A DNA stretch of 64,000 bases from Pseudobdellovibrionaceae bacterium (GCA_021731025.1 JAKFYD010000007.1:1-64000), one strand, 5' to 3'. Shown: positions 33,103-37,068, counted from the stretch's first letter. Notes: generated from the letters alone by a model not told the origin. A program made the numbers and translations.

Positions 33103-34281
33103 ATGAAGAATATCGGTATTGCAATTATACATATATGTTTTTTGGGCGCTGCTTTTGCTTCAGCAGCGGCTGAAACTAAAAAACAAACCTACGAATTTGA
33201 AGGAACAGACATCACCGCCTTCGTCGAGCATTTCCGTCCTGCAGTGAAGACCTTGAAAAAGCCCGTTACTGTTTATAATTGGTCCTCTTCAAGCCAGTCT
33301 GATTTTTGGAAAGTACCGCAGAAACCAAATGACGAAAATCTTGTGGCTATGGCCCAACGTATGGGTCAATCATTTTGGCGGAATTACGGCAGTCAGGATA
33401 GCGAACGAGGAGGTATGTACGGTTATGGTCTTTATGCTGCTTTAGATCCAGTGGTGACCCGAAGTTTTGGTGGCACTCAATGGGTTTTGTTAGAAATGCA
33501 GTTCCCGGCGGGATTTAAAATGATCGATCTTTACGATCCAATTCAAAAAACAAAATCAAGCGCGAACTTAAATACTCTTTCTGAAATAAATAAAAAATTT
33601 AAATGTTCTATGTCCGGTTATGTTGAGCTGGATGCCCTGTTCACCTCTGGTGGGAAATCAGTAGATCCCAGCTGTCAAAGATTAGTAAAAAATGTTTTTG
33701 GTACCATTTTTAAGATAGATGCATTTGCATACACTTAAGGTTCAACACAGTATAGTAGCTGCTCTGGTAGTTTCAATTCATACCGTGCCTTCGTTATTAC
33801 AAATCCCCATTGGATGAGTGCAGAAAATATAAATTTTTATTCATCAAATACGACAGCCAATTTGGAAGAACGAATTCGCATTCAAACTCTAACATTGAAA
33901 TCCCTTGAAACTTCTTCAGCAGAAGAAGATCCGAAAGCAATGCTCATTGCTCAAATAACTTCTTACATTAAGTTGAAGCCTGATAGCTACGTGGCTGGAT
34001 CGACAACTAAATGTGAAAACGACAGTTGTGTTATTAAAGTTAAATTTTGTGATTCGAGCACCGAGGCCTGCGAAGATGTTAGTTTGAATCCGATACCACG
34101 CCCAGGGGGAGGCCTTATTACTTCCCGTGAAGCTCAAAGAACCAGTAGCGGCCAACTCCTCTGGTCCGATCTTGAGGGTAAACCCAAACAAACCACCATC
34201 GACACCTGGCTTAAAAAAAATAATTACGGTTGTACTGTTGATTCTCCTTTTGTTGAAGATGCTAAAAAGGTATCACCATGA
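33103..34281 (+). pseudogene. Exported ADP-ribosyltransferase-like protein interrupted by an in-frame stop
   Basis: The frame from ATG 33103 to TGA 34281 is open except for one TAA at 33736-33738. Part one (211 residues) begins with a Sec signal peptide (ending ASAAAE) and contains VTVYNWSSSS, then GMYGYGLYAALDPVVTRSFGG. This looks like the paired strands of an ADP-ribosyltransferase fold (compare GxGLYxAxDPxxSxxFG). Part two continues at once with Cys-rich YSSCSGSFNSYRAFVI and NPHWMSAENINFY, where a late glutamate could be catalytic. No start codon with a ribosome site exists for part two until ATG 33814. I read it as one gene broken by a nonsense change. Readthrough or a sequence error are alternatives. 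It overlaps the Fic gene by ATGA. Confidence 0.6.
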
Positions 34282-35405
34282 AAATAAACTCGGTCGCACA
34301 ATTGAGTATACTTGTATTTATTTCTGCAATTAACTTCGCGGCCTGGTCTTGTCCCGAAAGTTTAAAGCTTTATCAAACAAAGTACGCTCACGGACTCAGC
34401 CTTTGCGAATTGCACGATCGCTATCAACAGGCTCTGCAGTCATTGCTTCAGCAAAACATTCAAAATCCTGAGCGCATCGGTAATTTAAGAGCACCGCGGT
34501 TTATCAATCTTCCAGATTGGTTGTCCAACCGCACTAACAGAGCAACATCGGCTTTGACGATTTATGAACCCGCACCTTCGACGTGGCTCAGTTGGGAAAA
34601 AGGGGCTCAGGTCATAGACAGTGAAGCCCGAAAAAATTTTGATCAACAAAAAATTCCAATTTTAACAATGGATTTTCTGAAAGATTTGCATGCAACGGCA
34701 CTAAATGGACTTCTGGATTCTGCTGGCCAGTTTCGTCAAGGTGGCGAAATCGGCATGGCTTTAAATCTGAAAAGCTCTTTGACTCGCACGCAATTAGTTG
34801 GACTTAAGAATAACGAGTACCGCGGAGTTCTAAATCGCGATACTAAAATAGTTGGTTTTAATCCGACCCACTGCTTGGAGCATCGAACCGAGGAGTTCAA
34901 AACAGAATGGTCCAAGCAGCGTTCATTTAAGCGAGTGTTATGGCCCATGATCGACAATCAACGCTATTTTGTTGATGCGAAGGGTATTGAAAGACAGTGT
35001 GGTTATTTTACTTACGCACCCCTTGATGAAGTTAAACCTCAGATCGAAAGCTGGCTTGCCTATGTCAATGCAGCAACTGCAACTTGGGGATCACAACAAC
35101 CTGATGGAGATCCTATTCTAGTGGCGGCCCGAGCTCAGCGTTGGTTTGTATCTATTCATCCCTATGAAAAGGGAAATGGGCGTGTCAGTCGTTTTGTGAT
35201 GGAGTGGCTTCTTCAAAGCCTAGGTCTGCCGGCCCCCGTTTTAGAAGATATGAATGAAGATCTTTACATGACGGAAAAACAATGGGCCGCAGAAGTCGGC
35301 GAAGGGATTCTGCGCGCGGTTAGTGCCGTGGAAGAATGTGCCCAAAATCCAGCTACCCTTGGCTGTGCCGAAATTGCTAAATCTTTAGAAGGAGAAAAAC
35401 CATGA
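34278..35405 (+). CDS. Exported Fic-domain protein
   Basis: The 375-residue protein has a Sec signal peptide (hydrophobic core SILVFISAINFAAW). The Fic core motif is complete: IHPYEKGNGRVSR with the catalytic histidine at residue 294. Fic enzymes usually transfer AMP, or another phosphate-linked group, from a nucleotide to target proteins. I see no S/TxxxEG/N inhibitory helix in the chain, and no antitoxin-like gene stands next to it. Export of a Fic enzyme is unusual, since most act inside the cell or are injected, so a target outside the cytoplasm or in another cell is implied. It overlaps both neighbours by ATGA (34278, 35402), so the operon is translationally coupled. Confidence 0.85.
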   Translation: MKINSVAQLSILVFISAINFAAWSCPESLKLYQTKYAHGLSLCELHDRYQQALQSLLQQNIQNPERIGNLRAPRFINLPDWLSNRTNRATSALTIYEPAPSTWLSWEKGAQVIDSEARKNFDQQKIPILTMDFLKDLHATALNGLLDSAGQFRQGGEIGMALNLKSSLTRTQLVGLKNNEYRGVLNRDTKIVGFNPTHCLEHRTEEFKTEWSKQRSFKRVLWPMIDNQRYFVDAKGIERQCGYFTYAPLDEVKPQIESWLAYVNAATATWGSQQPDGDPILVAARAQRWFVSIHPYEKGNGRVSRFVMEWLLQSLGLPAPVLEDMNEDLYMTEKQWAAEVGEGILRAVSAVEECAQNPATLGCAEIAKSLEGEKP

Positions 35406-36685
35406 GCTTCAGAAAAAATCTAATCGGTGGAATCGCACTTTGTCTGCTTTTGTCGGCTTGCAATCACCAAGCGCCCAATGATTCTACACTGACTCTTGTG
35501 TCTGCTTCAAAGATTGCCCAATCGGGAGCTCCAAGGAAAGTTAAATCTGAAGAGTACGCTAAAGCTGCAGAAGTTTTACTGACGGCACAAGGTTTTGAAG
35601 AAGCAGACCGCTTGGCGAAATTAGCTCTTGAGCAAGATTCTAAGAATTTGCGGGCTCAATTTATTCGAGCAGTAACATCGGTCATCATGGTCCAAAAGGG
35701 GATTTACGCGCGCATGAGCCCTTTGATCGAGAAACATCCGGCCGCGTTCAAAGAGTACCAACTAGCTGTGATCGAGATGAAAGTTGATGATAAAAAAAAT
35801 ATCAATAATTTTTTGTTGAACGGAAAAGCTGACATTGCCACTGAAGACCAATTCCAAAGTCATTTAGACTTAACTGCAAAAGCCATTGGTGATTTCCGCA
35901 AATTTGCGAAGGCAAATAAAGATTCAGAACTGACAATTAAGGCCAATGCAGATTTAGTTCCTGATCTTATTGAAAGATATGCAAATTCATGTGAAATCAA
36001 GGAAACAGCAAACCTTGAATACGAACTTGTTTGCCCTTCCCATCTGCAACGCTACGAAGTTACTTTTAACGGAGCCGATTTCGAAGCGATGGCCGCTGCT
36101 GCAGCGATGTATGAGACCGCATTTATCCTGTACAATGGATACGATCTTTCAGGTGCTGTGCAAATCGCTGCAAAGTATGCTGAAGTTGAAGATCGATCCA
36201 CCGAGGTGATCCTTCAAGACCTTTTTAAAAACTCGTCTTTTGGGAAACTTCGTAAAGCTGCGAAGTTAACTGAAATAAAAAATCTTGGTCTTGATCTTGT
36301 GAAAGGATTGAACTGGGCCATTCGCAATCAAAACACACTTTGCCCAAAAGGAAACTCTCATTCTCACAATCGGATAGGGAAATGGGCGAACAAAGGTCTT
36401 TGTTTGCCTCCAGTTGTCCAACCTCTAATCGAAAAGTTTGAAAAAGTATTTAATGGTGAAGCCATCGATCAGAATATCGAAACGCCATCTGGTCCATATC
36501 CGACTCAAGTGGCTTATGGGGCTTTCTTTATTAAACCAACACAAGACCTCCGCGCTTTGGGACCATTTCGTTTCGACCGCTGCAATCAGCTTCTTACGGT
36601 TGGTGATCAGACATTGGGTGGAGTTTTTCCGAATGCTGATGCCGATAAAATTCACTCCCTGCAAGCGAGCGAGTGCAAAAAGTAA
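35402..36685 (+). CDS. Lipoprotein with TPR-like region, function unknown
   Basis: The 427-residue protein has a lipoprotein signal with lipobox LLSAC at about residue 20. Residues 50-110 look like a tetratricopeptide pair (YAKAAEVLLTAQGFEEADRL, then ALEQDSKNLRAQFIRAVT). The long C-terminal part is helical with four or more cysteines (SCEIKE, LVCPSH, TLCPKG, LCLPP). It is the third gene of the exported Fic operon and overlaps that gene by ATGA. Its stop is immediately followed by the ATG of the last gene. A partner or scaffold role for the two enzyme-like proteins is inferred only from position. Confidence 0.7.
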   Translation: MSFRKNLIGGIALCLLLSACNHQAPNDSTLTLVSASKIAQSGAPRKVKSEEYAKAAEVLLTAQGFEEADRLAKLALEQDSKNLRAQFIRAVTSVIMVQKGIYARMSPLIEKHPAAFKEYQLAVIEMKVDDKKNINNFLLNGKADIATEDQFQSHLDLTAKAIGDFRKFAKANKDSELTIKANADLVPDLIERYANSCEIKETANLEYELVCPSHLQRYEVTFNGADFEAMAAAAAMYETAFILYNGYDLSGAVQIAAKYAEVEDRSTEVILQDLFKNSSFGKLRKAAKLTEIKNLGLDLVKGLNWAIRNQNTLCPKGNSHSHNRIGKWANKGLCLPPVVQPLIEKFEKVFNGEAIDQNIETPSGPYPTQVAYGAFFIKPTQDLRALGPFRFDRCNQLLTVGDQTLGGVFPNADADKIHSLQASECKK

Positions 36686-37027
36686 ATGAAAAAACTAGGG
36701 TTTGCTTTCTTTTTTATATTCTTATCACAGCCGTGGGTTCGAATGGCGGCTGCACCGATGACGAAATTTGAAATTCGTCATTGTGATGCTCAAAATTCTT
36801 GTTTCGTTGCTAGCGGTGAAAAAGCAAATATATCGTTAAGTCAGAATTATTTATCAGCAAGTGAAATTCAAGTTAAGGTCACAAGAAAAGGACAAGTGCC
36901 GCAGATTAATCATTGCGCTTCGATGACCTACGATCTGATCACCCAACTTTTAATTTGTGACAATCAAGATGTTGGGAGACCTTCATTAACTATAAACTCG
37001 CAAATGGTCGTTCGAAAATTTAACTAA
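36686..37027 (+). CDS. Small exported protein, last gene of the Fic operon
   Basis: The 113-residue product has a signal peptide (core LGFAFFFIFLSQPWV, cut near MAAA). The mature part of about 90 residues is beta-rich and holds four cysteines (HCDAQNSCF, NHCAS, LICDN) that could form two disulphides, which fits a periplasmic or secreted fold. ATG 36686 directly follows the TAA of the lipoprotein gene with no space, so translation is coupled. A hairpin follows 11 bases after its stop. No family is recognised. Inhibitor, immunity or chaperone roles toward the Fic or ART-like partners are all possible. Confidence 0.6.
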   Translation: MKKLGFAFFFIFLSQPWVRMAAAPMTKFEIRHCDAQNSCFVASGEKANISLSQNYLSASEIQVKVTRKGQVPQINHCASMTYDLITQLLICDNQDVGRPSLTINSQMVVRKFN

Positions 37028-37038
37028 AAAGAATAGAC

Positions 37039-37068
37039 GTGAGTTACTGCCACATGGCTGTAACTCAC
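37039..37068. terminator. Strong hairpin between convergent genes
   Basis: GTGAGTTAC (37039-37047) pairs with GTAACTCAC (37060-37068), and the stem continues inward with GCCA/TGGC after one T-T mismatch. There is no T run on the plus side. On the minus side a T-rich stretch follows, so it may end the M14 peptidase transcript and block the Fic operon transcript. Confidence 0.55.

What the first reader, a model, noticed from the sequence alone, without database searches (positions are those of the whole stretch)
33103..37068. Operon of exported Fic and ART-like proteins with two exported partners
Four genes in a row overlap by ATGA or touch, and all four products carry export signals. Two have folds of protein-modifying enzymes that use nucleotides (Fic: AMP transfer; ART: NAD). 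Fic proteins with a Sec signal are rare, and no antitoxin is present. In a predator this may be an effector set delivered to the prey or acting in the periplasm, with the lipoprotein and the small Cys-rich protein as carrier and guard. This is the best candidate for an undescribed system here.
Basis: partly seen in the sequence, partly recalled or inferred. Interest (0 to 1): 0.75.

Follow-up and report, generated by a model that had tools for sequence, protein, structure and literature searches.

The report
Exported Fic–ART enzyme pair in predators
Predatory bacteria of the Bdellovibrio group repeatedly keep genes for two exported enzymes, a Fic protein and an ADP-ribosyltransferase-like protein, side by side or fused into one protein, which suggests an undescribed two-enzyme weapon or regulator; in this particular genome the second enzyme's gene is interrupted by a stop codon.

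Summary
The gene row is real. The first gene is one ART-like gene interrupted by an in-frame TAA at 33736-33738; intact copies exist in relatives. All products carry export signals, and Fic matches Pfam above cut-off. The four genes are two separate modules. (1) ART + exported Fic: adjacent on one strand (≤154 bp, both orders) in 15 genomes of five Bdellovibrionota families; fused in G007 (ART–Fic) and probably twice in G331 (Fic–ART). In G203 a protein with a classical ART signature overlaps the exported Fic gene. No Fic lay in 259 kb of control loci. (2) LIPO + small Cys protein: widespread, usually near a TIGR02147 regulator, joined to ART–Fic only here and in G064. So the ART–Fic pair is conserved; the four-gene system is not. 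The ART fold is moderately supported: AlphaFold pLDDT 77; best PDB match the RES/ART toxin MbcT, probability 0.99, E 1.8e-3. The window's Fic motif, HPYEKGNGR, lacks the Mg-binding acid, so its AMP transfer is doubtful; the variant recurs in two other genomes. Best explanation: two exported nucleotide-using enzymes acting together outside the producer's cytoplasm, probably on prey; this copy may be decaying. Function is inferred. No earlier description found in the papers searched.

The parts
33103..33738 (+). ART-like gene, 5' part: export signal plus N-terminal half of the ART-like domain (motif GYGLYAALDP...SFG)
   Evidence: ORF; A1/A5 profile matches; fold of relative
33736..33738 (+). in-frame TAA stop that interrupts the ART-like gene; intact copies exist in relatives
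   Evidence: 1 TAA inside the match; relatives read through this column
33739..34281 (+). ART-like gene, 3' part, same frame; listed ORF starts at ATG 33814 with no Shine-Dalgarno sequence
   Evidence: L039 single protein matches both parts; 0/5000 shuffles stay open
34278..35405 (+). exported Fic-domain protein, 375 aa, conserved Cys 25, 43, 354, 363
   Evidence: PF02661 5.1e-12; alignment A2
35157..35192 (+). Fic signature HPYEKGNGRVSR (residues 294-305); acidic position replaced by Lys
   Evidence: compared with HxFx(D/E)GNGRxxR in PMC3667792
34581..34604 (+). conserved segment TWLSWEKG (residues 102-109), possible variant inhibitory helix (inference only)
   Evidence: A2 invariant columns W103, W106, G109; no canonical (S/T)xxxE(G/N) in the window Fic
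35402..36685 (+). lipoprotein (LIPO), 427 aa, lipobox Cys20; member of a widespread Bdellovibrionota family
   Evidence: A3 profile in 47/144 genomes of the class; contexts; tree
36686..37027 (+). small exported Cys-containing protein (SMALL), partner of LIPO; some relatives weakly LptC-like
   Evidence: small exported gene follows LIPO in many loci; TIGR04409 1.3e-4 for one relative, below cut-off
37039..37068 (.). GTGAGTTAC-12-GTAACTCAC inverted repeat between convergent genes, terminator-like
   Evidence: read from sequence

Best explanation
The core is a two-enzyme module: an ART/RES-fold protein (expected to use NAD) and a Fic protein (expected to use ATP or another nucleotide), in one operon and both exported by Sec into an oxidising compartment, where conserved cysteines can form disulfides. 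Outside the producer's cytoplasm they meet no ATP or NAD of the producer, so no antitoxin is needed. Inferred steps: they reach a neighbouring or prey cell and modify proteins or drain NAD there, acting on the same target or pathway (hence the pairing and the fusions). LIPO-SMALL is a separate envelope module that became attached to the operon in two lineages. In this strain the ART gene is interrupted and the Fic active site is non-canonical, so the module is probably impaired or, for Fic, altered in chemistry. Shown: conservation, linkage, fusion, export signals, the stop, the motif change. Inferred: activity, target, delivery.
For: Same-strand adjacency of ART and Fic within 154 bp, in both orders, in window/G000, G065, G064, G045, G054, G052 (f1), G082, G083, G079 (f7), G121 (f9), G176, G179, G172, G209 (f12) and G351 (f26); two further convergent neighbours (L192, L193); no Fic in 259 kb of control loci. 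Fusions: L200/G007, ART at 6-120 (1.3e-18 with the widened profile) and PF02661 in one 1317-aa protein; L240/G331, Fic plus ART at 9.6e-4, and L239/G331, Fic plus a GFGLYVSKSPSDS motif. Partner replaced by a classical ART: L236/G203 C-terminus PF03496 5.1e-5 (23.1 bits, cut-off 23.4), with Vis, ExoT and ExoS as nearest, weak PDB matches. Correlated divergence of the partners: Mantel r 0.73, p 1e-4 over 13 pairs. Export segment in 17/17 ART and 16/16 Fic, against 19/40 window genes. Fold: pLDDT 76.6, pTM 0.75 for an intact relative; best PDB match MbcT, E 1.8e-3, prob 0.99; the top sequence-profile match is PARP13's ART domain at the GxGxY motif, E 0.098, not significant alone.
Against: About three quarters of the ART genes examined have no Fic next to them, and many exported Fic genes stand alone. 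The ART catalytic His/Arg of the first motif is not conserved across the family (window YNW). No Pfam model matches the window ART, a profile comparison with RES was negative, and the MbcT superposition is loose (TM 0.24/0.46, rmsd 7.3). The window's ART is interrupted. Correlated divergence could reflect shared genome ancestry alone. No secretion route or target is known.
Confidence: 0.5

Rival explanations
1. Fic regulates ART (or the reverse): the pair is an enzyme and its modifying regulator in the producer's own envelope, one switching the other by AMP or ADP-ribose transfer.
For: Fusions in both orders and tight linkage fit enzyme and regulator as well as two effectors. No canonical inhibitory motif in the window Fic.
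Against: The periplasm holds no ATP or NAD (established knowledge). The partner slot can be filled by what looks like a different ART class, which argues for shared output rather than a specific regulator. Many ARTs lack a Fic.
Confidence: 0.2
2. A decaying locus: in this genome the operon is a remnant without function.
For: In-frame stop in ART; the closely similar Fic of G062 is frameshifted and not on the ART's contig; the window Fic lacks the acidic residue.
Against: The 180 codons after the stop stay open; Fic, LIPO and SMALL are intact; the E-K/R Fic variant recurs in G062 and G351, so it need not be decay. The stop could be an assembly error, since the genome is an 81-contig draft.
Confidence: 0.25
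3. All four genes form one dedicated system with the lipoprotein and small protein as carrier and guard.
For: Same four families together in the window and G064.
Against: LIPO occurs in 47 of 144 genomes of the class, mostly with SMALL-like and TIGR02147 neighbours and without ART-Fic; none of the 20 LIPO control loci holds an ART or Fic; the window's LIPO is closer to LIPOs outside the cluster (35%) than to that of G064 (29%).
Confidence: 0.05

Closest known systems
Fic/Doc protein adenylyltransferases (PF02661; SoFic, VbhT, IbpA)
   Same: Fic domain above the Pfam cut-off; His, GNGR and final Arg of the signature present
   Different: Sec-exported, conserved cysteines, long N-terminal domain, no canonical inhibitory motif in the window Fic, HPYEK instead of HxFx(D/E), paired with an ART
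RES-domain NAD-consuming toxins (MbcT, NatT, ParT)
   Same: Nearest solved fold to the ART-like protein, prob 0.99; RES toxins consume or transfer from NAD (PMC12457610)
   Different: No PF08808 match in the window, exported, no Xre antitoxin gene beside it, extra C-terminal domain, partner is Fic
Classical ADP-ribosyltransferase exoenzymes (PF03496; ExoS, ExoT, Vis)
   Same: One Fic partner, L236/G203, reaches PF03496 just below the curated cut-off
   Different: The window ART is another ART class; found in Bdellovibrionota beside exported Fic
FicT-FicA and RES-Xre toxin-antitoxin systems
   Same: Two-gene operons with an enzyme of the same fold
   Different: Both partners are putative exported enzymes; no antitoxin found

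Membership tests
Fic/Doc family (PF02661) | Pfam profile match above the curated cut-off | tested here: met
   46.9 bits against 24
Canonical Fic adenylyltransferases | Strict HxFx(D/E)GNGRxxR signature | tested here: not met
   Window HPYEKGNGRVSR; G064's ortholog HPFADGNGRVSR meets it; signature from PMC3667792
Class I-III regulated Fic proteins | (S/T)xxxE(G/N) inhibitory motif in Fic or in an adjacent antitoxin | tested here: not met
   None in the window Fic; scattered matches in four paired or fused relatives, not at the Fic core of a family-wide pattern; no small antitoxin ORF seen upstream of Fic
ADP-ribosyltransferase superfamily | ART fold | tested here: inconclusive
   MbcT E 1.8e-3, prob 0.99, loose superposition; weak ART matches below it
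ADP-ribosyltransferase superfamily | Conserved catalytic triad (H-Y-E or R-S-E) | tested here: inconclusive
   GxGxY invariant, first-motif residue variable, third motif not assigned
RES domain (PF08808) RES-Xre systems | RES profile match and Xre/MbcA antitoxin neighbour | tested here: not met
   No PF08808 match in G000; no Pfam hit for ART
Exported effector delivered to prey | N-terminal export signal | tested here: met
   Hydrophobicity test and lipobox on LIPO; no dedicated signal-peptide predictor at hand
Exported effector delivered to prey | Transfer into prey and activity there | not testable with these tools
   needs experiment

The most novel reading that the evidence does not exclude
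Bdellovibrionota predators use a partner-swappable 'Fic + ART' effector architecture, as operons or single fused proteins, that combines nucleotide transfer and NAD chemistry outside the cell. Exported Fic proteins of the model Bdellovibrio group (G003, whose length equals that of strain HD100) would be Fic-ART fusions too: their C-termini show VWRGL, YGYSTS and QAEVMGIG, an R-S-E-like pattern seen only at motif level.
Probability: 0.35. Interest if true: 0.82.

Novelty: new variant of a known kind. Interest (0 to 1): 0.6.

Why it matters
How Bdellovibrio-type predators disable and manage prey proteins is poorly known. A conserved couple of exported enzymes with known chemistries gives named candidate genes, including some in genetically tractable Bdellovibrio, so the idea that predators modify prey proteins with AMP or ADP-ribose becomes directly testable. 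It also shows one functional pair assembled repeatedly, by adjacency, fusion and apparent partner replacement.

Tried and rejected
Profile comparison ART against RES: negative. Single-sequence fold of the window Fic: unusable, pLDDT 34.8, so the idea that TWLSWEKG is a built-in inhibitory helix was not tested. PDB searches with the C-termini of the HD100-type and 850-aa-type Fic proteins: no ART match; a comparison with PF03496 relatives aligned the cognate motifs but without significance, so these stay leads. Viral structure library: only weak PARP-like matches. Toxin-antitoxin reading rejected: no antitoxin, both products exported. Literature searches found no Fic-ART pair in Bdellovibrio.

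Full report
Observation. The row runs 33103-37027 on the + strand and ends at a 9-base inverted repeat (37039-37068) before a convergent M14 carboxypeptidase gene. Junctions are as reported (ATGA, ATGA, TAA|ATG). The first gene is not intact: ORF 33103-33738 ends at an in-frame TAA, and the same frame continues to 34281 (listed ORF 33814-34281). In G064 (L039) both parts match one uninterrupted protein, at 36% and 43% identity, and G062 and G065 also have one protein. The 180 codons after the stop hold no further stop; none of 5000 shuffles achieves that. The draft has 81 contigs, so an assembly error cannot be excluded. I describe the stop and do not propose a repair.

Export. All 17 ART and 16 Fic proteins examined carry a strong N-terminal hydrophobic stretch, against 19 of 40 long window genes. 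Fic Cys25 and Cys43 are invariant and Cys354 and Cys363 nearly so; ART Cys220 is invariant and Cys377 nearly so. This fits folding in an oxidising compartment.

The pair. Searching the phylum with an ART profile gave 60 of 369 genomes, and with the Fic profile 174 of 369. Reading the loci showed ART and Fic side by side on one strand, within 154 bp and in both orders, in 15 genomes: G000, G065, G064, G045, G054, G052, G082, G083, G079, G121, G176, G179, G172, G351 and G209, from families f1, f7, f9, f12 and f26. G065's Fic has a run of N, and G052's Fic is cut by a contig end. No Fic was found in 259 kb of control loci. With roughly 1-2 such Fic genes per genome of about 3000 genes, chance adjacency would be about one in a thousand per ART gene (my estimate). 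About three quarters of ART genes have no Fic beside them, so the pairing is frequent, not obligatory. The genomes are related, so the 15 are not 15 independent events.

Fusion and replacement. In G007 one exported 1317-aa protein holds ART (residues 6-120, 1.3e-18 with the widened profile) and Fic (PF02661 6.4e-8). In G331 two exported proteins carry Fic first and an ART-like C-terminus (L240, 9.6e-4; L239, by the motif GFGLYVSKSPSDS only). In G203 the gene overlapping the exported Fic gene encodes a protein whose C-terminus matches PF03496 at 5.1e-5, 23.1 bits against a cut-off of 23.4, with weak PDB matches to Vis, ExoT and ExoS. Distances between ARTs and between their Fics correlate over 13 pairs (Mantel r 0.73, p 1e-4); shared genome ancestry could contribute.

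Fold of the ART-like protein. AlphaFold on an intact relative (L207:3269-4513, with the window protein in the six-row alignment, its stop read as a residue) gave pLDDT 76.6 and pTM 0.75. The best PDB match is MbcT, a RES-domain NAD phosphorylase toxin (E 1.8e-3, prob 0.99, but TM 0.24/0.46 and rmsd 7.3); the other matches are not significant. By sequence profile the top hit is the PARP13 ART domain at the GxGxY motif, E 0.098. PF08808 does not match in G000, and a profile comparison with RES proteins was negative. RES toxins of known function consume or transfer from NAD (PMC12457610). I take 'ART/RES-like' as likely, not proven; catalytic residues are not settled.

Fic active site. The signature for AMP transfer is HxFx(D/E)GNGRxxR, the acid binding the Mg of ATP (PMC3667792, PMC5033356). 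The window has HPYEKGNGRVSR; G062 has HPFERGNGR and G351 HPFEKGNGR, while most paired Fics are canonical. G351's Fic is also the closest paired Fic to the window's (37%). The recurrence suggests a variant chemistry rather than simple decay, but this was not tested. The window Fic has no canonical inhibitory motif; a conserved TWxxW(E/D)xG segment could replace it (inference). The Fic fold prediction failed.

Lipoprotein and small protein. The LIPO family occurs in 47 of 144 genomes of the class, usually followed by a small exported protein and often near a third lipoprotein and a TIGR02147/DUF4423 regulator. None of the 20 LIPO loci read holds ART or Fic. The window's LIPO is closer to LIPOs outside the cluster (35%) than to G064's (29%), and the tree does not resolve the two as sisters. 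So LIPO-SMALL is a separate module, and the guard/carrier idea is not supported.

A wider lead. Exported Fic proteins of 720-820 aa in Bdellovibrio (G003, 3,782,950 bp, which from memory is the length of strain HD100; G006, G007, G009, G010, G012, G014, G023) and in G097 and G190 have C-termini with conserved VWRGL/IWRGL, STS and (R)Q-x-E motifs. Another type in G013, G016, G038 and G059 shows LLR(S/A)D, ST(S/N)T and (E/Q)xE. This looks like R-S-E ART, but Pfam, PDB searches and profile comparison did not confirm it. If true, Fic-ART fusion would be common across the phylum.

Verdict. The most likely mechanism, exported enzymes acting on another cell, rests on linkage and export signals and needs biochemistry.

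Noticed in passing
L113-L132 (LIPO loci), e.g. L127:6786-10058: A conserved Bdellovibrionota module: LIPO lipoprotein, small exported protein (one relative weakly LptC-like), third lipoprotein of about 260 aa, and a TIGR02147/DUF4423 HTH regulator, sometimes with two LIPO copies. Function unknown; no paper in the library holds the term TIGR02147.
   Followed up: partly
L091:6266-11480 (G088) and L171:2847-8256 (G337): Tandem arrays of four and five ART-like exported genes without Fic.
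   Followed up: partly
L165, L166, L167, L168 (G176, G179): Exported proteins of about 940-1000 aa with the ART-like domain at the C-terminus and an unidentified N-terminal region; two of them are followed by exported Fic.
   Followed up: partly
L020, L253 (G003), L254, L256, L257: Large exported Fic proteins with a C-terminal R-S-E-like pattern (WRGL, STS, QxE), possible Fic-ART fusions in the model Bdellovibrio group; not confirmed by profile searches.
   Followed up: partly
L249, L250, L251, L255: Exported Fic proteins (lipoprotein-type in G013 and G016) of about 850-910 aa ending in a domain with LLR(S/A)D, ST(S/N)T and (E/Q)xE motifs.
   Followed up: partly
L046:7391-8539: Exported 382-aa protein of unknown family 5 bp after an exported Fic without ART; possibly another partner type.
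   Followed up: no
L042:7652-8690 (G062): Fic ortholog broken by a frameshift and unlinked to the ART of the same genome.
   Followed up: partly
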